Virus record (IMG/VR): IMGVR_UViG_3300035698_000983 | Coordinates: 1 to 24,101 of that record | DNA from: a virus | Length of the DNA stretch: 24,101 nt | Reading direction: 5' to 3' (one strand) | Shown: piece by piece, positions 1-11,421 of the stretch | Position numbering within the stretch: position 1 is the first letter of the stretch | Layout of the letters: each line of letters starts with the position of its first letter | Program-made: the position numbers and the translations under genes | The notes under the pieces: model-generated | The model's input: the letters and a program-made list of their open reading frames with translations, nothing else | Database searches by the model: none | What the model was told of the DNA's origin: nothing

Positions 1-250
1 CGAGGGTGAGCTGCATCGTGAGGATGGCCCTGCTATTGAGTATTCTGACGGGGATAAGTCTTGGTATCTCGAGGGTGAGCTGCATCGTGAGGATGGCCCT
101 GCTATTGAGTGGGCTGACGGGTATAATGAGTGGTGTCTCGAGGGTGTCGAGTACACCCAAGAAGAACACCGGATTAAGACCCAAGGTAACGCCTGTGAAG
201 GTAAGGTTATCGAGGTTGATGGTGTTAAGTATAGGCTTATGAAGGAGTGA
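1..250 (+). CDS. MORN-variant-like repeat protein, copy A (5' truncated by window edge)
   Basis: This is the C-terminal part of a tandem-repeat protein; its start lies before the window. The reading frame begins at base 2 and ends at TGA 248-250. Two 23-residue units are visible, each with the core HREDGPAIE followed by a turn and WYLEG or WCLEG. The shared C-terminal tail (EEHRIKTQGN, then EGKVIEVDGVKY, then LMKE) follows. The repeats resemble the MORN-variant/YwqK-type beta-hairpin repeats found in phage and bacterial proteins; that family link is by motif memory only. Bases 1-77 are identical to 1096-1172 in copy B, including synonymous positions, which points to recent duplication or gene conversion. 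The last codons (AAG GAG TGA) supply the ribosome-binding site of the next gene, which starts 4 bases after the stop. Function is unknown. Confidence 0.85.
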   Translation, partial: EGELHREDGPAIEYSDGDKSWYLEGELHREDGPAIEWADGYNEWCLEGVEYTQEEHRIKTQGNACEGKVIEVDGVKYRLMKE

Positions 251-254
251 AGAG

Positions 255-644
255 ATGTTACAACGAGTCATCTTCAGTATTGACAACGGTAAAGACTTGC
301 ATACTCGCAAGAAGTTTCTTCGCTATATTGATAACCTCCACGCTGTGGGTAAGGTCTCAAGTGTGCAGCAGTGCATCGGTATGTGGGAAGGAGAACTTGA
401 GACATCTTACATGATGCTCGCAAAGGACTATGAGAGCCACGTACAGCCTCACCAGTGTGTCAAGCATCAAGTTTGTATACTCAGGGTGCCTGGGGACACC
501 CGGCAACCCTGTGTGCTTGAGTATTCTGACGGTGAGCAAGTCTCTGTTGGCCGTATGGTTGAGGTTACCTACGGGGACGCTATGTCTCGAGAAGGGTGGA
601 CGTATGTGGAGGAGACAAGGAAGTTCTTCACCACAGAGCAGTAA
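255..644 (+). CDS. Conserved-looking phage protein of unknown function (129 aa)
   Basis: The ATG at 255 sits 7 bases after the AAGGAG that ends the preceding repeat gene, so the two are translationally linked. The product is soluble, without membrane segments or a signal peptide. It contains a region with LRVPGDTRQPCVLEYSDG near its middle and several aromatic/acidic segments. I do not recognise a domain. It is followed by the AT-rich regulatory stretch at 645-790 and stops with TAA. It could be an accessory early protein; nothing in the sequence indicates a biochemical role. Confidence 0.75.
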   Translation: MLQRVIFSIDNGKDLHTRKKFLRYIDNLHAVGKVSSVQQCIGMWEGELETSYMMLAKDYESHVQPHQCVKHQVCILRVPGDTRQPCVLEYSDGEQVSVGRMVEVTYGDAMSREGWTYVEETRKFFTTEQ

Positions 645-650
645 CCTAGG

Positions 651-671
651 GTATAAACTCTGAGTTTATAC
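651..671. repeat. Perfect 21-bp palindrome (possible operator)
   Basis: The sequence GTATAAACTC-T-GAGTTTATAC has two perfect 10-base arms around a single central base, just after the stop codon of the upstream gene. It leads directly into the 14-bp tandem repeats, which contain the same half-site (TTTATACTC). There is no poly-T run tied to it, so a repressor or initiator binding site fits better than an intrinsic terminator. The binding protein is not known. Confidence 0.7.
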
Positions 672-719
672 TCTAAGTTTTATACTCTAAGTTTTATACT
701 CTCTTATACTTCTCTAAAC
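665..719. repeat. AT-rich 14-bp tandem repeats (iteron- or operator-like)
   Basis: TATACTCTAAG occurs at 667 and 681, and a variant TATACTCTCTT at 695, giving an exact 14-bp period. A further degenerate copy (TATACTTCTC) begins at 705, and a related CATACTCTTAG at 724. The first unit overlaps the right arm of the 651-671 palindrome. Regularly phased AT-rich repeats in the only long intergenic region of this part of the window suggest either multiple operator sites or an origin-like iteron array. The sequence alone cannot decide between them. Confidence 0.65.
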
Positions 720-1280: not shown

Positions 1281-1589
1281 ATGGTTGGATACAAGAGTAT
1301 GCCAAGTAAACCACTAGGTATCACGAACTTCCTTCGTAAGCAGGACGGGTTAGAACCTCTCCCTTTAGAAGCTGACTGGGGTGAGTACTATTACAACGGC
1401 AGCGCCCCCACACAAGAAATCTTAGAGAGTTTGATATCGTATAGAGAGGGTTCCATTGACCTCGCCTTCTCATGGTCTTCTACACCTCAAGGTTTTGATC
1501 ACTGGAGTCGGCTTTGTGACAACGGCCCAGAGTATCTTACGGACTTGGATGTTAGGTACCTTGAGTACTTACTTGCAGAACACACATAG
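1281..1589 (+). CDS. Protein of unknown function (102 aa)
   Basis: The ATG at 1281 follows the stop of repeat gene copy B by 4 bases and uses the AAGGAG/GAGGAG embedded in its end. The product is acidic, rich in aromatic and Leu residues, and has no Cys pairs or membrane segments. A segment LDVRYLEYLLAEHT ends the protein. No domain is recognised. It ends with TAG, which shows that TAG works as an ordinary stop in this genome. Confidence 0.7.
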   Translation: MVGYKSMPSKPLGITNFLRKQDGLEPLPLEADWGEYYYNGSAPTQEILESLISYREGSIDLAFSWSSTPQGFDHWSRLCDNGPEYLTDLDVRYLEYLLAEHT

Positions 1590-1651
1590 CAGGAGTATCG
1601 TAATGAACTTCAATCAATTCATGCGCAAAGTAGACGGAAGGAACCCTCCAA

Positions 1652-2629
1652 ATGGACCTGATCATAATACGACGACGGGGTCTCGGCCTCTCGACCTGCA
1701 AGGCATTGTCGAGTATACTCGGGGATATGTCGGTAACAACTGGAATCTGGAGGCACGACCGCCGCTTCCCGACCGCAGAGCAGACCTCTTCTGGGCAGGG
1801 TATGCTAGAGTACCCTACAGTACTGCGGTGGGGGTGTACCGCGAGTGTTCCCAGCACTTCTACTGGGCAGGCGCGCACTATTATCAATCAGGCCTCGGGC
1901 ATTCATCGAGTGAACAACAAGACCCAGTTCCTCCTTCACCTCCAAGAGAACCTAGCGGATCAAACAGGGCTGCTACCAGTGATCACTGGGCAGACTCAGT
2001 TTTCTGGGCAGACTCAGTTGTCTGGGGAACCAGCTCTTACGGGAGACCAACAGTGGGTGGTGCGACCAGATCACCACAGCCAAGGGAGGAACCTCACGGT
2101 ACTGTCCTACTCTCAGCTTCGTGGGTTGATGACGGACTCTCAGATGGATGGTCACTACGCGAGACCATTGGTCGAGAAGAAAGCGGAGTATCGGGTGTAC
2201 GTAGTGAACGGGAGAGTGGTGAACGTGGCTCAGAAGACACCGAGCAACCCTTCTGATGTCGCTTGGAACGTAGCTCAAGGTGGACGGTTCGATAACGTAC
2301 GATGGGGTGACTGGCCTATGAAGGTGGTTGACCTTGCTTGTCGTGTCTTCCCTCACACAGGGCTTAACCTTACAGGTATCGACGTGATGGTTGACCATGC
2401 TGACAATGCTTGGTTCATCGAGGCTAACTCTGCCCCCTCCTTACCATTCAATTCCGATGGATCGACCACGTACCGACAGAAGTGTATCGCCAAAGCGATT
2501 CACTACACACTCACAGAAAACAAGGAGATGCTTGATGTCAAAACAGGCGAAGGGTGGAGAGGATACGTTCACCCAGCAATTTACCGAGAGGCGGGAGTTA
2601 CGGAGGAAGCAAGCCAAGAAAGCGTTTGA
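1652..2629 (+). CDS. ATP-grasp domain ligase (325 aa)
   Basis: ATP-grasp enzymes join a carboxylate to an amine or thiol through an acyl-phosphate. The visible signature is a nucleotide-binding strand WVVRPD (residues 135-140) followed by a Gly/Ser loop HHSQG (141-145), a substrate segment EYRVYVV (179-185), a metal-binding aspartate in GIDVMVD (242-248) and the terminal metal motif FIEANS (255-260). The N-terminal part (LIIIRRRGLGLSTCKALSS) resembles the pre-ATP-grasp region of phage homologues. An in-frame TAG at 1631-1633 excludes an earlier start; GGAAGGA upstream of 1652 is a fair ribosome-binding site. The 3' end overlaps the next gene by 95 bases. It heads a cluster with cyclotransferase-like, amidoligase and glutamine amidotransferase genes, so it probably works with them on a peptide-like substrate. 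The substrate is unknown. Confidence 0.85.
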   Translation: MDLIIIRRRGLGLSTCKALSSILGDMSVTTGIWRHDRRFPTAEQTSSGQGMLEYPTVLRWGCTASVPSTSTGQARTIINQASGIHRVNNKTQFLLHLQENLADQTGLLPVITGQTQFSGQTQLSGEPALTGDQQWVVRPDHHSQGRNLTVLSYSQLRGLMTDSQMDGHYARPLVEKKAEYRVYVVNGRVVNVAQKTPSNPSDVAWNVAQGGRFDNVRWGDWPMKVVDLACRVFPHTGLNLTGIDVMVDHADNAWFIEANSAPSLPFNSDGSTTYRQKCIAKAIHYTLTENKEMLDVKTGEGWRGYVHPAIYREAGVTEEASQESV

Positions 2630-3020
2630 TACTAACCCTCTAGTGTTTGTCTATGGAACGCTCAAGGAAGGGTGGGGTAATAACCGCTTGCTTGACACCT
2701 CTAAGCTGATAGTCGAGACAACCAGCGATGGTCTCTTTGCTCTTGGTAACATTGGTTTTCCTTACGCCTTTCCTTCTGAGTCTGTCCCTAAGGAGTATAC
2801 GAAGCTACTCTTCCCTGTCATGGGGGAGGTATACGAAGTGGATAGTGTCGAGACCTTCATCAGTCTTGACTCACTTGAGGGTTACCCCTCCCACTATGAG
2901 CGCTCTGTCTACAACTTTAAGAGTGGACACAGCGCTTGGATGTACATTCAACCCAACTGGGAGGACGCAAACTATTGCTCCTCCTGTTCATTAAAAGAAG
3001 GAGTATGGTCATGGCCTTGA
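2535..3020 (+). CDS. Gamma-glutamylcyclotransferase-like (AIG2/GGCT fold) protein (161 aa)
   Basis: The fold's hallmark VYGTLKEG is at residues 39-46. It is followed by a Gly-rich segment and the motif GEVYEVD near 97-103. The catalytic-type glutamate is in LDSLEGYPSHYER (E115). Family members release a gamma-glutamyl amine as free amine plus 5-oxoproline, or cleave related isopeptide links. The ATG at 2535 was chosen because AAGGAG (2522-2527) precedes it at normal spacing; it lies inside the 3' end of the ATP-grasp gene. The end overlaps the amidoligase start. The likely role is trimming or editing of gamma-glutamyl or amide linkages made by the neighbouring ligases. C-terminal Cys residues (148, 151) are not typical and may be structural. 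Confidence 0.85.
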   Translation: MSKQAKGGEDTFTQQFTERRELRRKQAKKAFDTNPLVFVYGTLKEGWGNNRLLDTSKLIVETTSDGLFALGNIGFPYAFPSESVPKEYTKLLFPVMGEVYEVDSVETFISLDSLEGYPSHYERSVYNFKSGHSAWMYIQPNWEDANYCSSCSLKEGVWSWP

Positions 3021-3868
3021 CACTTGAATGGAGCGGAAGCTTCACCCGTGTGGCAACAAAACGTAAGAACAAAGTCTCTGTTGGTTTCGAGTGGGAAATC
3101 CCAGCTGAAATCCAAGAGCGTGAAGAAGAAATCTATTGTGATTGTGACACTGACGAGGACTACTGCGGTTGTTACTCTGAGTGTGAAGAATACGTTGATA
3201 TGTCTGGAGACACAGAAGACTTTATTAATACCCATGGTTTCCGTACCCACATTGAGTGTGGTGGTGTAGAGTTTGCATCCCCTGTCTTCGGTAACATCTC
3301 TACTGCTCGACGCTTTGCTACTGCTTTGAAAGAAGTATCTCTCAAGGATCATGCTTTGGGTGCGGATGTGGGGGGGTACCACTCTTGCGGTATTCACGTA
3401 CACTCAGGGTTTACAGGCTGGGCTGCTGGTAATAACGGGTATGGCATCCCTTATGATGTCCAGCGGGACTACGAGCGTGTGTCTAACATGCTGAACCGAA
3501 AGTCTTCCGCAGCGTTTGTCCTTGCGTTCTCAGGGCGAGAGAACGGTAACTCAAGTTACCGTACACAAGGTGTCTCTAGCGAGTGGGACGAGGCGGGAAA
3601 TGCTGAACCAACAGAGGACCAGCTAAAGTTTATGAGGATTATGCAAATGGTCCGACCGAATGTCTTTAATAAGGTTGGTACGATTGAGTACCGTCTGTGG
3701 GATACGGCAGAAGATCGACTTCTTCCTGCTATTGAGTTTGCTCATGCTTGCACCTCCTTTGTTACTTCTCGCAGGGGTATTCCCTTCCTGAAAGACTTTA
3801 AGGTTTGGCTTGATAAGCAAGCAGGCTACAAGATTCTGAAACAAGATGACGCATGGCGTCTGGTATAA
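3011..3868 (+). CDS. COOH-NH2 amidoligase, glutamine-synthetase-like fold, first copy (285 aa)
   Basis: Amidoligases of this family (described by Iyer, Aravind and colleagues) use ATP to join a carboxylate and an amine. Seen here: GFEWEI (25-30) as the first metal-binding strand, VEFASP (86-91), the His-rich motif HSCGIHVHSG (124-133) and GTIEYRLWD (223-231). These correspond to the Glu and His/Arg positions of the active site. The ATG at 3011 is favoured over 3005 because AAGGAG at 2998-3003 is then 7 bases away. An unusual insert at residues 39-62 is very rich in Cys, Asp and Glu (C43, C45, C52, C54, C58) and could bind a metal. It overlaps the cyclotransferase stop and is followed closely by a second amidoligase. 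Confidence 0.82.
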   Translation: MALTLEWSGSFTRVATKRKNKVSVGFEWEIPAEIQEREEEIYCDCDTDEDYCGCYSECEEYVDMSGDTEDFINTHGFRTHIECGGVEFASPVFGNISTARRFATALKEVSLKDHALGADVGGYHSCGIHVHSGFTGWAAGNNGYGIPYDVQRDYERVSNMLNRKSSAAFVLAFSGRENGNSSYRTQGVSSEWDEAGNAEPTEDQLKFMRIMQMVRPNVFNKVGTIEYRLWDTAEDRLLPAIEFAHACTSFVTSRRGIPFLKDFKVWLDKQAGYKILKQDDAWRLV

Positions 3869-3880
3869 CAGGAGAAGACA

Positions 3881-5134
3881 ATGACAATTGTAACACTAGA
3901 CCTAGGCCACTGCACTATTCAACAAGACGTTGACACGTCTGGCGGTACATTCATTGGAGGTATCCGCGCCCTGACGTTTACAAGACGTTGGTTTCAGAAG
4001 CTCTCCTTTGTAGCTGCTCTTCCTAGTAACACATGGGGTGCTCTTGCTACCTACGTTAAAGAGAATGAAGAAGCTCTGAAGGCGGACGGTGTTGATTTGG
4101 AGGACCTAGTTTACCTTCAGACTGCATCTACTGAGGAGCTAGCGCAGCCTATCATCTGTATCACCCTAGAAGAAAGTTCTTCTTCCTACTTATTTGAACC
4201 TGTGGTGAAGGATAACCCTACCTATGACTATAATTGCGTGAGTGCCCACCCTCACTTGCCTCTGAGGAGGGTGTCACCTGTTACTGTTTCGGCCCGTACT
4301 GTCTCGCAGCCCTCCGGTCAAGCTGGTGCCCGAGTTATGAACTACACCTTTCGTCCTGACTATAAGTTCATGACCTTACCTAAGGAAAAGTCTGAGTGCT
4401 ACTTCGGACTTGAGCTTGAGGTTAACTCTCGTATCCCTTGGAGCGACCTCTACCGTGTGATGACAGAGGTCGCTCCTTTTCAGGAACCCTTCATCTTTGC
4501 AAAGAGTGACGCGAGTATTTCAGGTGAGTTTAACAACTGCTATGAAATTGTCTCACACCCTATGTCACCTCGCCGGTTACGCCTTGAGTTCTCTCGTTTG
4601 TTCAAGAAAGTGGAGGCTCTCTTGACAGCCAAAGGTGTGGCATGGGGGTCTGTGTTTGATATGAACACAGAGTCTACCGGCATCCACATCCATGTTTCAA
4701 AGGGTGCTTTCACACCTCTGTCACGTACCCATAAGAAGAAGTTCATGCTCCTATGGAACAGTTCGAGTCCCACTGTCTTAGCTTTTACATCAAAGTTGGC
4801 AGGACGCAAGGTGCAGGGCAACCACTACATTAAACCAGCACCGGAGTACAATGGGCGCTCAACAGCTTGGATGTTGAGAGAGGGACGGAACATCAACCGA
4901 CACTCAGCTTGCAACGAGACAAGTCAAACAGTTGAAGTACGTGTGTTCCGTGGCCAACCTTCTATCTCTTCTGTGTTTCACGCTGTTGACACAGTGGAAG
5001 CAATGCTAAAGTACACAGAACAAATGCCTAACTCTTGCCTGAACTACCACTTCCCTGCTCACTTCACAGCTTGGCTTGGTAAGCAGAACAAGAACTCTTT
5101 TCGCCACCTTAAGGAGACTCTCAAATGTGCCTAA
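3881..5134 (+). CDS. COOH-NH2 amidoligase, second copy with N-terminal extension (417 aa)
   Basis: The C-terminal half carries the amidoligase signature: YFGLELEVN (174-182), KSDASI (208-213), YEIVSHPM (221-228), the His motif STGIHIHVS (265-273) and VEVRVFRG (351-358). The first ~160 residues form an extra domain without a recognisable motif, perhaps a substrate or partner module. The start at 3881 has AGGAG at the right distance. Sequence resemblance to the first amidoligase is limited to these motifs, so this is an old divergent pair rather than a recent duplication. The end overlaps the amidotransferase start by 10 bases (ATGTGCCTAA), which suggests coupled translation. It may add a different amino acid or ammonia to the same substrate; that is inference. 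Confidence 0.82.
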   Translation: MTIVTLDLGHCTIQQDVDTSGGTFIGGIRALTFTRRWFQKLSFVAALPSNTWGALATYVKENEEALKADGVDLEDLVYLQTASTEELAQPIICITLEESSSSYLFEPVVKDNPTYDYNCVSAHPHLPLRRVSPVTVSARTVSQPSGQAGARVMNYTFRPDYKFMTLPKEKSECYFGLELEVNSRIPWSDLYRVMTEVAPFQEPFIFAKSDASISGEFNNCYEIVSHPMSPRRLRLEFSRLFKKVEALLTAKGVAWGSVFDMNTESTGIHIHVSKGAFTPLSRTHKKKFMLLWNSSSPTVLAFTSKLAGRKVQGNHYIKPAPEYNGRSTAWMLREGRNINRHSACNETSQTVEVRVFRGQPSISSVFHAVDTVEAMLKYTEQMPNSCLNYHFPAHFTAWLGKQNKNSFRHLKETLKCA

Positions 5135-6132
5135 TAATGCTAAGAAAACCAAACGTTATCCTCGATAAGGTGAAGTTTGATACCGCTATCCTCAATAACC
5201 CTGATGGGTGGGGCCTCTCTGTTCCTGACATGGGTGGTCAACTCTATACCACACGCAGTGCGACAACAGACAAAGATGAGCTGTATGATATGGTACATGG
5301 GGAGTTCAAAGCGGACAAACTTATGCTTCACCTTCGTTACACTACAGCAGGGGACACCGTTATTCGTAACGCCCACCCTTTCCCTGTGCTCGAGCTTGGG
5401 GAGGATGGTGTTGACATGCGTATGTGCCACAACGGTACACTGTCTGCTTGGTCTCCTCACATCAAGGACACTGAAGGAGCTTGGGAATCCGATACCCGTC
5501 GCTTCGTACGTGGTTTTGTTCGACCACTCATGAAACGTATGGCTAAAGGCCATACCAGTCAGGACATTTTGACTGATCCTTTTGTTGATATGTTACTTGA
5601 CGATCAGTTGACAGCTACGTCTGTGCTCACCTTCATGGATGGTTACGGTAACTTCAGTGTCGTGAATGAGGAAGGTAACGGTGGTTTCACAGATACAGAC
5701 GGCACCTACTTCAGCAATAAATACTCACATGATCCAGAGCATCGAGTTCCTTACTCTCAACGCAAGGGGTACACCCCTGTGGGAAAGACTATTGGGACGA
5801 CGAGTACTGGTGGTCGTCCCAATACTACCACGACGACCCAGCCCAGCAAACCTGGAGAGGCTATAATCTCTACTGATTGCAACATAGCCTCCTTCATCAC
5901 TAAGTACGGTCTGACTGATGCTGATGACCTTCATCTTATGTCTGATGACACCCTCCAAATTATAGTAGAGGATGAACCGGAAGATGCCTTGCTGTTGATC
6001 AAGGAACTTCTGTACCTTCATTACTCCTCAGATAAAGCGGTGAAAACTATGGTTCTAAAAGGTAAGATAAAGGACAAACGGATTAAGTCCCTTGAAGAAA
6101 AGCTAACAGTAAAGGAAAAGAACAATGGGTAA
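5125..6132 (+). CDS. Class II glutamine amidotransferase (Ntn-hydrolase fold, 335 aa)
   Basis: The protein begins Met-Cys, so removal of Met exposes Cys2 as the N-terminal nucleophile of a class II amidotransferase. Matching active-site segments are NPDGWG (25-30), HLRYTT (69-74), NAHPF (82-86) and CHNGTL (101-106). Such domains hydrolyse glutamine and pass ammonia to a partner ligase. No synthetase domain is fused here, so the adjacent amidoligases or the ATP-grasp protein are the natural partners. The C-terminal ~100 residues after a Thr/Pro-rich linker (~225-245) are acidic and helical-looking, possibly for docking. The start overlaps the previous gene by 10 bases and the end overlaps the next by 8, so the operon is continuous. 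Confidence 0.85.
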   Translation: MCLIMLRKPNVILDKVKFDTAILNNPDGWGLSVPDMGGQLYTTRSATTDKDELYDMVHGEFKADKLMLHLRYTTAGDTVIRNAHPFPVLELGEDGVDMRMCHNGTLSAWSPHIKDTEGAWESDTRRFVRGFVRPLMKRMAKGHTSQDILTDPFVDMLLDDQLTATSVLTFMDGYGNFSVVNEEGNGGFTDTDGTYFSNKYSHDPEHRVPYSQRKGYTPVGKTIGTTSTGGRPNTTTTTQPSKPGEAIISTDCNIASFITKYGLTDADDLHLMSDDTLQIIVEDEPEDALLLIKELLYLHYSSDKAVKTMVLKGKIKDKRIKSLEEKLTVKEKNNG

Positions 6133-6760
6133 ACTCTTAGACTTCACACCCCCTACCGTTTTACCCAGTGGTATTGAGGTAGGCACCAGCCTCTATGATG
6201 ACGTCTGGTTCTCCTGTACCCCTGACCTACCTGCTCTACGGTACGCTGGACGTATCCCTGTCTTCATCTGGGATGAGATCAAGACTTACAAAGAGGAGGC
6301 AAGTCCTCTTACAAAGAGCAACTCTCTGGTTGACACCTACCTTGTTCTGACTAAGGATAAGTACACCCCGTTCCGTAACGCAGCAGACAAACCATCCACA
6401 CCTCATGACCTGTTGCTGCCTTCCAACCCTGACTGGGCGGCAGGGGTGAAGGGTCTCTCTTTTACAGGGGAGAAAAAGCAGCTTGCTGGACGCCTTCTCC
6501 ATGTGAGTCTTGAAGGTATCCAGGCCTTGGATCGGTACTACCTCAATACTGCACTACATGAACGCAAGAAGGTACCTGTTGTTATGCAGGACGCTACAAA
6601 ACCTGAACGAGTAGCGTGGATGTATACCTTACCAACCCGTAGCTTTATGCGGTATGCCCCTCACGAAGAGTCCTATGAGATGGTGCGGGGTTTTGAGCCA
6701 CAACAGTGCTCAAGCCTAAGCCAAGGGCAGTATACTAGCACATACACAAAACGTAGTTAG
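6125..6760 (+). CDS. Protein of the amidoligase operon, possibly cyclotransferase (AIG2)-like (211 aa)
   Basis: The ATG at 6125 overlaps the amidotransferase stop and has AAAGGA upstream. The C-terminal half (LAGRLLHVSLEGIQALDRYY, then HERKKVPVVM and RVAWMYTL) has the spacing of the GGCT/AIG2 fold: an entry strand, an LDxY segment in place of LDxxEG, an arginine-bearing strand and a final strand. The usual YGTL phosphate/Gly loop is not evident and the catalytic Glu position is Tyr, so if the fold is right the protein may be inactive or altered. The N-terminal half is unassigned. Operon position is the strongest argument for a role in the same pathway. It ends with TAG. Confidence 0.6.
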   Translation: MGKLLDFTPPTVLPSGIEVGTSLYDDVWFSCTPDLPALRYAGRIPVFIWDEIKTYKEEASPLTKSNSLVDTYLVLTKDKYTPFRNAADKPSTPHDLLLPSNPDWAAGVKGLSFTGEKKQLAGRLLHVSLEGIQALDRYYLNTALHERKKVPVVMQDATKPERVAWMYTLPTRSFMRYAPHEESYEMVRGFEPQQCSSLSQGQYTSTYTKRS

Positions 6761-7187: not shown

Positions 7188-8279
7188 ATGAAATACACGC
7201 GAGAGTACAAGGTGAACGGAGAGAAACGATGGCAGTTTGTATGTCCCCGTGATGTCGTAGCTGCCGGAGTTGCTAAGTCGCAGGTGTTTGATGACGGACG
7301 GATAGCTCGTTTTGAGATACCAAAGCTTATCACTCTTGTAGACCTGTATCGTAGCGGAGACATTAAGGAAGGCACTATAGGTACTCACTCCCTGATGGTG
7401 CACCTACTAAACCACTACATACGTACTGACTACTACCGTCAGTTGGCTGGCTCCTCACAGAAACAATACGAGTCTGTCTTAGGGTCATGCCTAGCCACCC
7501 CAGTAAACAGTAAGACCTTTGGTGACATCAAGGTGACAGAGGTAGACACTAAGCTATGCCGTGACTTGTACACACAGTGGACCACCGATGGTTCTGTGTC
7601 CTTGTCTAACACCAAGGCTCGTGTCTTGTCAGTACTGTTGAACTACGCAGTGAGCATTGAGTTACTCGTAAACAACCCAATGGCTAAGGTACGTAAGCTT
7701 AAGCATGAGCCTACCACCCGCATATGGACGCAAGTAGAGGTAGAGAAGTTGCTTGAGGTAGGGTACCAAGGCTTTGACCTAAGGAACATCACCCTGCTGG
7801 CTCATATGTGCTATGAGTATGCACAGAGACCTGTTGATATCTCCCGCCTTACATGGGAGCAGCTAGACTTTGGTACTAACTGTATCACCATACGTCAGAC
7901 TAAGCGTGGTACTACTGTCCACCTCCCTATTGAAGAACCACTACGTACCATGCTGCTAGAACAACAAGAAGCGTGGGACTTCCAGCCCTACGTTGTACCT
8001 CACCAGACACCAAGGGGTTCACGGTATCACGTCATGAATCGTTCAGAGATGAACACTAGTTTCAATGCCCTTAAGGATGCAGCGGGGTTAGACCCTGATC
8101 TACACCTAGGGTTACTAAGGAAAACCGCAATATCGGAGTTGGTTCAGGCTGGAGTTGACGCGGTAGGTATCATGCAAGTTACAGGGCATAAGAGTATCGC
8201 AAGCCTTAACCCCTATATGAAACACACACTGAAAGGTGCAAGCGCAGCACTCTCACAAAGGAGAAGTAATAATGATTGA
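7188..8279 (+). CDS. int: Tyrosine recombinase / phage integrase (363 aa)
   Basis: Tyrosine recombinases exchange DNA strands between phage and host attachment sites. An N-terminal arm and SAM-like core-binding domain (residues ~60-170) precede the catalytic domain. Catalytic residues visible are R214 in YAQRPVDISRL, K239 in TKRG, R311 in HLGLLRKTA, H334 in TGHKS and Y343 in NPYMKH. In the box II pattern HxLR the His position is Gly308, while a His lies two residues earlier (H306); this deviates from the usual pattern but not all members keep that His. The ribosome-binding site is weak. The last 8 bases overlap the next gene's start. Its presence suggests a temperate or formerly temperate phage. 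No attP core could be identified by eye. Confidence 0.9.
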   Translation: MKYTREYKVNGEKRWQFVCPRDVVAAGVAKSQVFDDGRIARFEIPKLITLVDLYRSGDIKEGTIGTHSLMVHLLNHYIRTDYYRQLAGSSQKQYESVLGSCLATPVNSKTFGDIKVTEVDTKLCRDLYTQWTTDGSVSLSNTKARVLSVLLNYAVSIELLVNNPMAKVRKLKHEPTTRIWTQVEVEKLLEVGYQGFDLRNITLLAHMCYEYAQRPVDISRLTWEQLDFGTNCITIRQTKRGTTVHLPIEEPLRTMLLEQQEAWDFQPYVVPHQTPRGSRYHVMNRSEMNTSFNALKDAAGLDPDLHLGLLRKTAISELVQAGVDAVGIMQVTGHKSIASLNPYMKHTLKGASAALSQRRSNND

Positions 8280-8781
8280 GTATAAAGTGGAAGTCTACTC
8301 TGACGGGAGTAAGTATTGGTTCCTCGAGGATAAGCGGCATCGTGAGGATGGCCCTGCTATTGAGTATTCTGACGGGGATAAGGAGTGGTATCTCGAGGGT
8401 GAGCTGCATCGTAATGATGGCCCTGCTGTTGAGTTGGCTAGCGGGACTAAGCAGTGGTATCTCGAGGGTAAGCGGCATCGTGAGGATGGCCCTGCTACCG
8501 AGTGGGCTGACGGGGATAAGGAGTGGTATCTCGAGGGTGAGCTGCATCGTAATGATGGCCCTGCTGTTGAGTTGGCTAGCGGGTATAAGGCGTGGTATCT
8601 CAAGGATAAGCTGCATCGTGAGGATGGCCCTGCTGTTGAGTATGCTAGCGGGACTAAGCAGTGGTATCTCGAGGGTGTCGAGTATACCGAAGAAGAACAC
8701 CGTCTTAAGACCCAAGGTAACACCTGTGAGGGTAAGGTTATCGAGGTTGACGGGGTTAAGTATAAACTTATGAAGGAGTGA
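8272..8781 (+). CDS. MORN-variant-like repeat protein, copy C (169 aa, five repeats)
   Basis: This is the longest paralogue, beginning MIEYKVEVYSDGS and holding five 23-residue units. Two alternating types are visible: one with HREDGPAxEY/EW and one with HRNDGPAVELASG. Units 2 and 4 are close to each other, as if a two-unit block had been duplicated. The tail is the same as in the other copies (EEHRLKTQGNT to LMKE). The ATG at 8272 overlaps the integrase stop and has GGAG upstream; an in-frame ATG at 8236 is rejected because the paralogues start at MIEY. More sequence variation between units than in copy B suggests an older expansion. Function is unknown. Confidence 0.85.
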   Translation: MIEYKVEVYSDGSKYWFLEDKRHREDGPAIEYSDGDKEWYLEGELHRNDGPAVELASGTKQWYLEGKRHREDGPATEWADGDKEWYLEGELHRNDGPAVELASGYKAWYLKDKLHREDGPAVEYASGTKQWYLEGVEYTEEEHRLKTQGNTCEGKVIEVDGVKYKLMKE

Positions 8782-8792
8782 AGAGATGAGTG

Positions 8793-8837
8793 ATGCACCA
8801 GAGTGTGTGCTACATATGCGGCGAGATTGGAGATTGA
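8793..8837 (+). CDS. Possible 14-aa micro-ORF with CxxC, leader to primase
   Basis: ATG 8793 opens MHQSVCYICGEIGD and stops one base before the primase ATG. A second frame opens at 8786 (18 residues, right behind the AAGGAG of the repeat gene) and ends in ATGA overlap with the primase start. Only one, or neither, can be real. The CYIC motif looks like half of a zinc ribbon, so this may be a leftover of a small zinc protein or simply a coupling peptide. Confidence 0.25.
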   Translation: MHQSVCYICGEIGD

Positions 8838-8838
8838 T

Positions 8839-11421
8839 ATGAAAGAACACACACCCCCTATCAAGACACACCGTACCTGTCCCAAGTGTGGGGCTGGGGG
8901 CAGCTACTCTGTATGGGCTAACGGGGCTGGCTACTGTCACTCCTGTAATGAGTCTGCACATGGGGACGCTACCCAAGAGAAGCAAGTTCAACTCAAGGAA
9001 CCAACACGTATGCCAACAGACCTAGTCCTAAAAGATCACCCGATGCGAGGGGTAGACGCAGACGTAGAGAAGTTCTACGGTGTTCAGACAGGTATGTCTG
9101 AGAGTGGTGACCCTGTCACCCGAGTATATCCCTACCCCCATCGACCCAAGACACGTATCCTACCTAAAGACTTCTCTAAGAACTATGGGTTTACCAACGA
9201 TCATCTCTTTGGTATGGATAAGTTTAACGCAGGTAGCTCGAAGTATCTCACGATTACTGAGGGTGAGGAGGATACACTCGCTGCCTATCAGCTTCTAGGA
9301 AAGACCTTCCCTGTCGTGTCTCTCCCCTCTGCTGGCTCAGTGAAGTCTGTCCTCCAGAACAAAGAAGCATATAACTTCATCAAAGCTTTCTCTGCTATCA
9401 TCATCGCTACTGATAACGACGAAGCAGGTAACAAGAGTGCAGAGATTCTACAACGTGCATTCCCTGGTCGCTGCTACCGTGTTAACATGTCCACTCACAA
9501 AGATGCGTCAGCTTATCTACAGGCTGGGCATGGGTCAGACTTCAAGTATGCTTGGATCAATAGGCAGAAGTACGTCCCTGATAATGTGTTCAACACCACT
9601 GATCAGTTTGAGAAGATCATCCGCGATGACAAGGGGTCTATGTATATTCCTACTGGCATCACTGACCTTGACTCCCGTTTGTTAGGGCTTATGCAAGGAC
9701 ACTTCACTGTGTTCACTGCACCAGAGGGCGTAGGCAAGCAACTACCGAACACGACCCTTATGCCTACACCTACAGGTTTCACAACTATGAGTGATCTTCG
9801 AGTGGGTGATACTGTGTTTGGAGCCGACGGTAAGGGGACAAAAGTAACCTTCGTAACCGAGACACAGAACAACGTACCATGTTATGAATTAGTTTTCTCT
9901 GATGGTACAAGCCAGGTAGCTGGTGGGCCTCACAAATGGGGAGTGTATACCACTTACGACACTTACAAGGTTAAGACAACTGACGAGATGGTAGCTGAGG
10001 GGGTAACCCGTGGCGAGGGGGTGGCTCTTTACTCTGTACCTATCTGTCAGCCGCTCGACTTACCTTATGCTGATAATCTTATAGACCCTTACACATTGGG
10101 TTTGTGGCTTGGTGACGGACACTCTTACAGCGCGAACATCTCTGTTGGTTACGACGATGCCGAGCAGTTCGAGGCGATGTTTGATGTCATTAATAAGAAT
10201 GAGTACGAGACCTGTATCTCTTATCGAGTATCAACTTTAACACACGAACAACTGAGGGTCAGTGGTCTGCTGAAGAACAAGCACATCCCTGAGAAGTATC
10301 TTCGTGCATCCATTGAGCAACGTACAGAGCTATTACAAGGTATGATGGACAGTGTCGGCAGTGTGACCGGACGTGGTTGTGAGTTCTACACATCCTCAAA
10401 TATACTCCTCGAAGACTTTCTTGACCTAGCGCGGGGCCTTGGTTACAAGTGTCGGTCACGAGCTAAGCAGTCCAAATTATATGGTGTACCTAAGAAGATG
10501 GCGTACACTGTGTGGTTCCTCAACCACTCTGACAAGGAGGTTTTTAAGTACGAACGAAAACAGAACAAGGTTGTTAATTGTGAGACGTACCGAGCTACAC
10601 GTAAGACTATTCGTAGCATTACTCCTGTAGCCTCTGTGCCTTCAAGGTGTATCACAGTGGATAATGAGGATCACCTATATCTCTGTGGGGATGCTTACAC
10701 TGTTACACACAACACAGAATTGATGCGTAAGGTGGAATATAACCTGCTTGCTAACCACCCTACTGTGCCTATTGCGATCATGCACCTTGAGGAAACAAAG
10801 AAGCGGAGCCTACTTGGCCTTGCCTCCTACTTCCTCCATAAGGATGTCACTCTTCAAGATACTAAGACAATCACTAACGACAATGGCGACGAAGAGATTG
10901 TGTACTTACCAAGCTACAAGGGAACTTCTGAGGATGAAGTACTCCAAGCTATCAAAGAGTTTACTGATCGTGAGAACTTCTACCAGTTTACTCTAAGTGT
11001 AGACGACGACCCGATGTCTATCCTCGAGCAGATCAGATACTTCGCTGAGGTGTGTGGTTGTCGCTATGTCTTCTTCGAACCTATCCAAGACCTAGCATAC
11101 TCTCGTCAGAACGATGCGAGTATTGAGGGTTGGCTAAGCGAGCTTTCTACTAAGCTGTCTCGTCTTGCTACTGAGCTAGGGGTTGGCATTGTATCCATTG
11201 CTCACGAGAATGACGATGGGCAAATACGTGACTGTCGTATGATTGGTAAACGAGCCAGCGTTGTTATCAAGCTAAGCCGCGATAAGCTAGCCACCGACGA
11301 TGACACCCGCAACACTACTAATCTTGTGGTCGATAAGAACAGACCCGTTGGTCCAACAGGGTTCGGCGGTATGCTTGAGTTTGACCCATCGAGCTTTACC
11401 CTGGGTGAGAAATCTTTTTAG
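8839..11421 (+). CDS. DNA primase-helicase (T7 gp4-like) interrupted by an intein (860 aa precursor)
   Basis: The protein makes RNA primers and unwinds the fork. Domains in order: a Cys4 zinc ribbon (C14, C17, C33, C36); a TOPRIM primase core with TITEGEED (138-145) and IIIATDNDEAG (187-197); and a RecA-like hexameric helicase whose P-loop is APEGVGK (294-300) continued by Thr626 after the intein. Motifs after the intein include the Walker B-like strand YVFFEPIQDLAY and the IVSIAHEND segment. Without the intein the length is 535 aa, close to T7 gp4. The ATG at 8839 has GGAG upstream and the zinc ribbon follows at once; an in-frame GTG at 8803 is less likely. It lies between repeat copies C and D and ahead of the polymerase. 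It ends with TAG. Confidence 0.92.
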   Translation: MKEHTPPIKTHRTCPKCGAGGSYSVWANGAGYCHSCNESAHGDATQEKQVQLKEPTRMPTDLVLKDHPMRGVDADVEKFYGVQTGMSESGDPVTRVYPYPHRPKTRILPKDFSKNYGFTNDHLFGMDKFNAGSSKYLTITEGEEDTLAAYQLLGKTFPVVSLPSAGSVKSVLQNKEAYNFIKAFSAIIIATDNDEAGNKSAEILQRAFPGRCYRVNMSTHKDASAYLQAGHGSDFKYAWINRQKYVPDNVFNTTDQFEKIIRDDKGSMYIPTGITDLDSRLLGLMQGHFTVFTAPEGVGKQLPNTTLMPTPTGFTTMSDLRVGDTVFGADGKGTKVTFVTETQNNVPCYELVFSDGTSQVAGGPHKWGVYTTYDTYKVKTTDEMVAEGVTRGEGVALYSVPICQPLDLPYADNLIDPYTLGLWLGDGHSYSANISVGYDDAEQFEAMFDVINKNEYETCISYRVSTLTHEQLRVSGLLKNKHIPEKYLRASIEQRTELLQGMMDSVGSVTGRGCEFYTSSNILLEDFLDLARGLGYKCRSRAKQSKLYGVPKKMAYTVWFLNHSDKEVFKYERKQNKVVNCETYRATRKTIRSITPVASVPSRCITVDNEDHLYLCGDAYTVTHNTELMRKVEYNLLANHPTVPIAIMHLEETKKRSLLGLASYFLHKDVTLQDTKTITNDNGDEEIVYLPSYKGTSEDEVLQAIKEFTDRENFYQFTLSVDDDPMSILEQIRYFAEVCGCRYVFFEPIQDLAYSRQNDASIEGWLSELSTKLSRLATELGVGIVSIAHENDDGQIRDCRMIGKRASVVIKLSRDKLATDDDTRNTTNLVVDKNRPVGPTGFGGMLEFDPSSFTLGEKSF
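9739..10713 (+). mobile_element. Class 3-type intein in the helicase P-loop, with a probably decayed LAGLIDADG endonuclease (325 aa)
   Basis: The insertion splits the Walker A motif between Lys and Thr; removing it restores GVGKTELM. Block A (LPNTTLMPTPTGFTTMSDL) is clear, but residue 1 is Gln, not Cys or Ser. The non-contiguous WCT set of class 3 inteins is present: W67 two residues after block B H65, C304 at the block F position normally Asp (RCITV), and T323 just before the terminal H324-N325. The +1 residue is Thr. Endonuclease block C is LGLWLGDGH (D126). Block E reads LLQGMMDSVGSV, with Val206 where the catalytic Asp is expected. Splicing is probably active because the host protein is essential; the endonuclease may be dead or nicking only. 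Confidence 0.88.

What the first reader, a model, noticed from the sequence alone, without database searches (positions are those of the whole stretch)
1652..6760. Phage operon for amide/peptide-bond chemistry: ATP-grasp, cyclotransferase, two amidoligases, glutamine amidotransferase
Five or six consecutive overlapping genes encode enzymes that form, supply nitrogen for, or cleave amide bonds. Each has its active-site motifs in view. Iyer, Aravind and co-workers described COOH-NH2 ligases, ATP-grasp and AIG2/GGCT genes clustered in bacteria and phages, so the theme is known. This version has two divergent amidoligases, a stand-alone Cys2 amidotransferase and an extra AIG2-like protein, and its substrate is unknown. 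It could build a peptide tag on a host or phage protein, modify cell wall or glutathione-type metabolites, or decorate nucleotides.
Basis: partly seen in the sequence, partly recalled or inferred. Interest (0 to 1): 0.82.

Follow-up and report, generated by a model that had tools for sequence, protein, structure and literature searches.

The report
Phage amide-bond (peptidoglycan-modification-type) gene cassette
An environmental bacterial virus carries six neighbouring genes for making and cutting amide bonds, a divergent member of a gene set already described in other viruses and thought, without direct proof, to alter the host cell wall after infection; the one unreported feature is a second gene read in another frame inside the first enzyme gene.

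Summary
Six overlapping or nearly abutting genes on the + strand encode a RimK-like ATP-grasp ligase, a GGACT/AIG2 cyclotransferase, two amidoligases, a Cys2 class-II glutamine amidotransferase and a degenerate AIG2-like protein. The two amidoligases score no Pfam hit alone. Profile-profile comparison places both with phage Amidoligase_2 (PF12224) proteins (E 2.5e-8 and 2.8e-17), and a predicted structure of the second has the glutamine-synthetase/YbdK fold. The gene order is kept in three independent IMG/VR phages down to about 40% identity.

This is not new in kind. The same set, two amidoligases included, sits before the primase-helicase in Pseudoalteromonas phage RIO-1 and LUZ24-like phages. 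It is published as a 'peptidoglycan modification cassette' proposed to block superinfection; Sinorhizobium phage phiM6 has a four-part version. I found no experimental proof of the substrate.

It overlaps the first 200 codons of the ATP-grasp gene in another frame. It is held open in four divergent phages (codon-permutation p 0.0005-0.007 each). RIO-1 shows a comparable overlap in the same frame.

Verdict: new member of a known kind, modest interest.

The parts
1603..2256 (+).
   Evidence: SD AGGAG 7 nt before ATG. Conserved start and N-terminus MNxxxFMRKxDGR in L003 and L007, and an ORF in the same frame in L011. Codon-permutation p 5e-4 here. No Pfam, NCBIfam, PADLOC or phage-collection match.
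1652..2629 (+). ATP-grasp ligase, RimK/glutathione-synthetase-like, 325 aa
   Evidence: PF08443 5.6e-5, phrog_2599 6.9e-18, rimK_fam 1.4e-8. R138, G145, E179, R181, K195, D244, E257, N259 invariant with RIO-1, UFV-P2 and phiM6 ATP-grasps.
2535..3020 (+). Gamma-glutamyl(amine) cyclotransferase, GGACT/AIG2 family, 161 aa; overlaps the ATP-grasp gene by 95 nt
   Evidence: PF06094 1.1e-13. VYG motif and Glu115 invariant in 7 phage homologues. PDB relatives YtfP and human AIG2-like domain-containing protein 1.
3005..3868 (+). Amidoligase 1 (AL1), 287 aa; start 3005 or 3011
   Evidence: hhalign to 13 phage PF12224 proteins E 2.5e-8, prob 95%. GxExE, HxH and ExR residues invariant with AL2 and the MEP402-type family in 20 sequences. 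No direct Pfam hit; its own structure model failed.
3881..5134 (+). Amidoligase 2 (AL2), 417 aa: N-terminal extension of unknown role plus catalytic domain from about residue 166
   Evidence: hhalign to phage PF12224 family E 2.8e-17; tblastn to MEP402 gp06 2e-4; AF2 catalytic domain mostly pLDDT 77-94; Foldseek PDB top hits all glutamine-synthetase/YbdK fold, BFVD top hits 'Amidoligase enzyme'.
5125..6132 (+). Stand-alone class-II (Ntn, Cys2) glutamine amidotransferase/amidohydrolase, 335 aa
   Evidence: PF13230 1e-5. M-C2, HLRYTT (R71), HNGTL (N103, G104) and SDT (D123) invariant in 5 close homologues; C2, R71, N103-G104 and D123 also in phiM6. Overlaps AL2 by 10 nt.
6125..6760 (+). Degenerate AIG2-like protein (AIG2b), 211 aa
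   Evidence: PF06094 only 20.5 bits (cut-off 22.8), second half only. YGTL motif and catalytic Glu absent in all 5 homologues (LDxYY instead of LDxLE).
1281..1589 (+). Small gene immediately upstream, present at the same place in the relatives; possible leader gene of the operon, role unknown
   Evidence: Homologues in L003 and L007, a similar ORF in L011; phrog_16354 9e-7, unknown function.

Best explanation
This is a divergent member of the known phage amidoligase/ATP-grasp/GATase/GGCT cassette, called a 'peptidoglycan modification' cassette in the literature. SHOWN HERE: six gene products of the expected families, in conserved order, upstream of the integrase and primase-helicase, with the key catalytic residues kept in five of the six. 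INFERRED: in the early phase of infection the ATP-grasp and the two glutamine-synthetase-fold ligases use ATP to join an amino acid (most likely glutamate, often through its gamma-carboxyl) to an amine on a peptide-like host substrate. The Cys2 amidotransferase and the cyclotransferase then cut gamma-glutamyl amides or supply ammonia, so that bonds are added and removed or swapped. The logic resembles EgtA/EgtC in ergothioneine synthesis, where a gamma-glutamyl ligase adds and a class-II amidotransferase-like enzyme removes a glutamyl group. The most likely target, following the published proposal, is the peptide of peptidoglycan or another surface structure, altering the envelope against superinfecting phages. 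AIG2b is probably a non-catalytic or repurposed partner. My step confidences: membership of the cassette 0.93; gamma-glutamyl chemistry 0.6; envelope target 0.4.
For: Family assignments. GS/YbdK fold of AL2, top hit gamma-glutamylmethylamide synthetase. Invariant active-site residues in 20 amidoligases, in ATP-grasps, in GATases and in GGACTs. Whole-operon synteny. The same set before the primase-helicase in RIO-1, UFV-P2 and phiM6; ATP-grasp, GATase and GGCT are also annotated in phiEco32. Published function proposal. EgtA/EgtC precedent from PMC10805701.
Against: No substrate has been shown in any paper found here. AL1 and AL2 are not demonstrably orthologous to the RIO-1 or LUZ24-type ligases (hhalign E 0.001 or worse), so substrates may differ. 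No gene in the operon is itself a cell-wall gene. A RimK-like ATP-grasp fits protein glutamylation equally well. Foldseek TM-scores are low (about 0.3), in part because the AL2 N-terminus is unmodelled.
Confidence: 0.6

Rival explanations
1. The cassette tags a host or phage protein: the RimK-like ATP-grasp and the amidoligases add glutamate or short peptides to a protein, and GGACT and GATase trim or recycle the tag.
For: The ATP-grasp is closest to the RimK alpha-L-glutamate ligase family (NCBIfam rimK_fam 1.4e-8; phrog_2599, annotated 'ribosomal protein S6 glutaminyl transferase'). Phage R2K ATP-grasps are predicted to modify proteins (PMC7824862).
Against: ATP-grasp specificity cannot be read from such distant similarity (34 bits against a cut-off of 143). 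Protein glutamylation needs only one ligase, not three.
Confidence: 0.25
2. The cassette makes or recycles a small gamma-glutamyl metabolite (glutathione-like, polyamine or amine conjugate), for redox balance, nitrogen scavenging or defence.
For: GGACT relatives (human AIG2-like domain-containing protein 1), GS-fold gamma-glutamylmethylamide synthetase as top structural hit and the class-II GATase all act on small gamma-glutamyl compounds (own knowledge of the families).
Against: Three ligases and two GGCT-fold proteins is a large set for one small metabolite. The published reading is a peptide or surface substrate.
Confidence: 0.12
3. The enzymes decorate phage nucleotides or DNA with an amino acid or amide group.
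For: The cassette lies next to replication genes. Class-II GATases take part in some deazaguanine modifications (own knowledge).
Against: No nucleobase hydroxymethylase, DpdA or QueC-like gene was recognised among the window proteins that were profiled (not every window ORF was tested, and the record is a fragment).
Confidence: 0.03

Closest known systems
'Peptidoglycan modification cassette' of RIO-1-like podoviruses (RIO-1 gp8-gp14, PSA-HP1; PMC5498523)
   Same: GGCT, GATase, two amidoligases/COOH-NH2 ligases and ATP-grasp, all upstream of the primase-helicase. Long ORF overlap onto the start of the ATP-grasp gene in the same frame relation.
   Different: Different gene order. Ligase sequences not detectably orthologous. 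RIO-1 has no second AIG2-like gene annotated in the cassette; there the overlapping ORF is the amidoligase tail, here a separate ORF.
LUZ24-like module, e.g. Pseudomonas phage UFV-P2 ORF21-ORF29 (PMC3890496; PMC11945000)
   Same: COOH-NH2 ligase, Amidoligase_2, GATase, ATP-grasp and AIG2 just before the primase-helicase.
   Different: Interrupted by an HNH gene and small ORFs; one annotated AIG2 gene; no long overlap on the ATP-grasp.
Sinorhizobium phage phiM6 / Rhizobium phage RHph_N3_19 cassette
   Same: Amidoligase, ATP-grasp, GATase and GGCT in a row before the primase-helicase. GATase is the closest found outside the lineage (hhalign 1.1e-17).
   Different: One amidoligase in the row; further GATase, aminotransferase and peptidase genes upstream in phiM6; no ORF-X.
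OM43 phages MEP401/MEP402 amidoligase-GATase pair (PMC10580990)
   Same: AL2-like amidoligase whose 3' end overlaps the GATase start by 10 nt, as here.
   Different: Two-gene minimal form: no ATP-grasp, GGACT or AL1 annotated there.

Membership tests
Phage amidoligase/'peptidoglycan modification' cassette | Amidoligase(s), ATP-grasp, class-II GATase and GGCT/AIG2 encoded together | tested here: met
   All found at 1652-6760
Phage amidoligase/'peptidoglycan modification' cassette | Placed in the early/replication half, upstream of the primase-helicase | tested here: met
   Integrase 7188-8279 and primase-helicase 8803-11421 follow; same in L003, L007, L011 and RIO-1
Phage amidoligase/'peptidoglycan modification' cassette | Modifies host peptidoglycan or surface and blocks superinfection | not testable with these tools
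   Proposed, not demonstrated, in the papers read
Amidoligase_2 (PF12224) | Profile match | tested here: met
   No direct Pfam hit, but profile-profile E 2.5e-8 (AL1) and 2.8e-17 (AL2) to a family whose 13 members all hit PF12224 at E 0.01 or better
Amidoligase_2 (PF12224) | GS/GCS-type active site and fold | tested here: met
   GxExE, E, HxH, R, ExR invariant in 20 sequences; AL2 model hits the glutamine-synthetase/YbdK fold. AL1 model unusable.
COOH-NH2_lig (PF14395) | Profile match | tested here: not met
   No Pfam hit for AL1 or AL2; hhalign to RIO-1 gp10 and UFV-P2 ORF21 not significant
Class-II glutamine amidotransferase | N-terminal Cys2 plus Arg, Asn-Gly and Asp of the glutaminase site | tested here: met
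   C2, R71, N103-G104 and D123 invariant; PF13230 above cut-off
ATP-grasp (RimK-like) | Nucleotide-binding and Mg-binding residues | tested here: met
   R138, E179, D244, E257, N259 invariant across RIO-1, UFV-P2 and phiM6; PF08443 above cut-off
GGACT/AIG2 (2535-3020) | YGTL motif and catalytic Glu | tested here: met
   V39-Y40-G41 and E115 invariant
GGACT/AIG2 (6125-6760) | YGTL motif and catalytic Glu | tested here: not met
   Both absent in all five homologues; profile score below cut-off

The most novel reading that the evidence does not exclude
The operon begins with a genuine overprinted protein, ORF-X, sharing the first 200 codons of the ATP-grasp gene in a second frame. Dual coding over the ATP-grasp N-terminal half recurs in cassettes of different phage groups: here as a separate ORF, in RIO-1 as the amidoligase tail. 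It would make a co-translated accessory or regulatory subunit for the ligases.
Probability: 0.5. Interest if true: 0.5.

Novelty: new member of a known kind. Interest (0 to 1): 0.33.

Why it matters
The cassette recurs in phages of very different hosts, yet I found no report of its substrate being tested. This lineage adds another arrangement and shows which parts persist: in the isolates and contigs sampled, the amidoligase-GATase pair is the minimal form. That narrows what to assay first. The dual-coded ATP-grasp start, if expressed, would be a long protein overlap inside a metabolic enzyme gene, and it offers a simple genetic handle. As it stands, the operon itself is expected rather than surprising.

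Tried and rejected
- DNA-level search of the phage collection with 7.1 kb of the operon found nothing. tblastn with AL1, the ATP-grasp or ORF-X found no phage record.
- AlphaFold of AL1 with two sequences failed (mean pLDDT 38.7) and was not used.
- Scans of 84,980 bacterial and archaeal genomes with the GATase and integrase alignments found no prophage relative; these scans use short patterns and can miss distant ones.
- PADLOC found no defence-system match.
- ORF-X was first judged as chance frame similarity. Fourfold-degenerate sites of the ATP-grasp are not more conserved inside the overlap than outside, which argues against strong constraint. Codon permutation, which controls for composition, still finds the frame open too long in each of four phages, and similarity in that frame exceeds the null only in the overlap. 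It therefore stays as probable, not proven.
- In one search the L011 ATP-grasp frame was set wrongly; one search corrects it.
- L022 (Mycobacterium phage RedRock) was fetched by a guessed accession and is irrelevant.
- The papers by Iyer et al. 2009 and Hardies et al. 2013 are not held; their content is cited only through papers that quote them.
Full report
WHAT IS THERE. The window is a 24,101-base IMG/VR virus record. Between 1281 and 6760 the + strand carries a compact operon. Its core is ATP-grasp (1652-2629), GGACT (2535-3020), amidoligase 1 (AL1, 3005 or 3011 to 3868), amidoligase 2 (AL2, 3881-5134), class-II GATase (5125-6132) and an AIG2-like protein (AIG2b, 6125-6760). Every start has a Shine-Dalgarno-like sequence. 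An integrase, a primase-helicase with an intein and a family-A DNA polymerase follow.

IDENTITY OF EACH PART. ATP-grasp: RimK PF08443 above cut-off, phrog_2599 at 6.9e-18 and NCBIfam rimK_fam at 1.4e-8, the last below its cut-off. Ligand residues are invariant across RIO-1, UFV-P2 and phiM6. GGACT: PF06094 1.1e-13, with VYG and Glu115 kept in seven phage homologues. GATase: PF13230 above cut-off, with Cys2, R71, N103-G104 and D123 kept. AIG2b: below cut-off, with the catalytic Glu and YGTL lost in all five homologues.

AMIDOLIGASES. Neither hits Pfam or NCBIfam directly. AL2 finds MEP402 gp06 by tblastn (2e-4), a protein that PMC10580990 reports as PF12224. I collected homologues of gp06 from IMG/VR and aligned 13 proteins (A6); all 13 hit PF12224 at E 0.01 or better. 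Profile-profile comparison gives E 2.5e-8 for AL1 and 2.8e-17 for AL2. Negative controls in the same setting, AL1 or AL2 against the GATase and ATP-grasp profiles, gave E of 0.26 or worse. Across 20 sequences the GxExE, E, HxH, R and ExR residues are invariant. The AL2 model (catalytic domain mostly pLDDT 77-94) finds gamma-glutamylmethylamide synthetase, glutamine synthetases and YbdK in the PDB (E 1e-4 to 1e-3) and phage 'Amidoligase enzyme' entries in BFVD (down to 2.9e-12). TM-scores against the PDB are low, about 0.3. An AL1 model with two sequences failed.

CONSERVATION. All six genes keep their order in L003, in L007/L012 (99.99% identical over the stretch compared, so one phage) and in L011, where proteins are 36-49% identical; L008 and L010 hold part of it. 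Third codon positions diverge most in each gene. By sequence of the replication genes, the nearest isolates are Roseobacter phages: CRP-4 and CRP-5 for the polymerase, and CRP-345 and HMO-2011-type phages for the integrase. The CRP-4, CRP-9 and CRP-345 regions looked at show no annotated cassette. A Rhodobacteraceae host is therefore plausible but not shown.

PRIOR ART. PMC5498523 describes a seven-gene 'peptidoglycan modification cassette' in RIO-1-like podoviruses: two amidoligases, ATP-grasp, GGCT and GATase. It lists phiEco32, 7-11, PA11, tf, MR299-2, LUZ24, PaP3 and CW02 as carriers and cites the superinfection hypothesis. RIO-1's record shows gp8-gp14 in this form. UFV-P2 ORF21-ORF29 has COOH-NH2 ligase, amidoligase, GATase, ATP-grasp and AIG2 before the primase-helicase. 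PMC11945000 uses 'putative peptidoglycan modification module' for a LUZ24-like phage. phiM6 and RHph_N3_19 carry amidoligase, ATP-grasp and GATase followed by a GGCT-family protein, and phiM6 a second GGCT. The two-amidoligase composition is therefore not new. AL1 and AL2 are, however, not detectably orthologous to the RIO-1 or UFV-P2 ligases, so chemical details may differ.

MECHANISM. Three ATP-dependent amide-forming enzymes and two enzymes of families that cut gamma-glutamyl amides (or release ammonia) lie in one operon beside replication genes. The layout pairs the ATP-grasp with GGACT and AL1/AL2 with the GATase. A precedent is EgtA/EgtC: EgtA makes gamma-glutamylcysteine and the amidotransferase-like EgtC later removes the glutamyl part (PMC10805701). 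I infer write-and-trim chemistry on a peptide-like substrate, most likely envelope peptide as published. This target is not shown here; protein tagging with a RimK-like enzyme is the main rival.

ORF-X. At 1603-2256 an ORF of 217 codons starts 49 nt before the ATP-grasp and runs through its first 200 codons in another frame. Relatives have an ORF in the same frame, each with its own SD: 179 codons in L003, 123 in L007, 151 in L011. The start MNxxxFMRKxDGR is shared by the window and L007, nearly so in L003, less so in L011. Codon permutation of the ATP-grasp gene, keeping protein and codon usage, gives p = 0.0005 (window), 0.0045 (L003), 0.007 (L007) and 0.0007 (L011) for the open length from the start. 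Fisher's combination gives 3e-8, but the phages are related, so this overstates independence. As a control, none of ten other window genes was open beyond chance in this frame; a stricter maximum-length version was weaker for L007 (p 0.10). Similarity in the ORF-X frame exceeds a null that keeps aligned codon pairs inside the overlap (p 0.01 or less) and not outside it. Against it: lengths vary, no homologue is known, and fourfold sites are not more conserved in the overlap. In RIO-1 the annotated amidoligase tail overlaps the ATP-grasp start in the same frame relation (open for 131 codons, p 0.0013). UFV-P2, phiEco32, phiM6 and RHph_N3_19 do not show this.

VERDICT. The system is a new member of a known kind; the overlapping ORF is the only part that may be new.

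Noticed in passing
window 1603-2256; L003 3731-4270; L007 from 3460; L011 from 900; RIO-1 (L023) 8179-9444 over 9047-9895: Long ORFs overlapping the first half of the ATP-grasp gene in the same relative frame, in this lineage and, as an amidoligase tail, in RIO-1; statistically longer than codon usage predicts.
   Followed up: yes
window 8803-11421, about residues 313-636 of the product: Intein inside the P-loop (GVGK^...HN^T) of the primase-helicase; it begins with Gln instead of Cys or Ser, also in L003, L007 and L011. The phiM6 homologue has the uninterrupted GVGKT.
   Followed up: partly
window 255-644: Small protein matching the phage S-adenosylmethionine lyase family (PF23780, 1.4e-6, above cut-off), a candidate counter-defence gene upstream of the operon.
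   Followed up: partly
window 6-242 (region near the record's start), 863-1276 and 8236-8781; L003 1010-1675: Repeat proteins (units like WYLEGELHREDGPAIE, DUF6745-like) flank the operon. In L003 a different repeat protein (YdcK-type beta-solenoid) sits upstream and ends in a similar C-terminal motif (EGKVIxxDGVxYxL), as if repeat bodies were exchanged on one tail.
   Followed up: partly
L011 around 600-960: The small gene before ORF-X and ORF-X itself contain nearly the same stretch (VKLNGFKEF / VKLNGFKNF), suggesting ORF-X's start arose by duplication of the upstream gene's start (frames).
   Followed up: no
window 647-675 and 722-751: Terminator-like hairpin with T-rich tail followed by a promoter-like site upstream of the operon; pattern matches only.
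   Followed up: no
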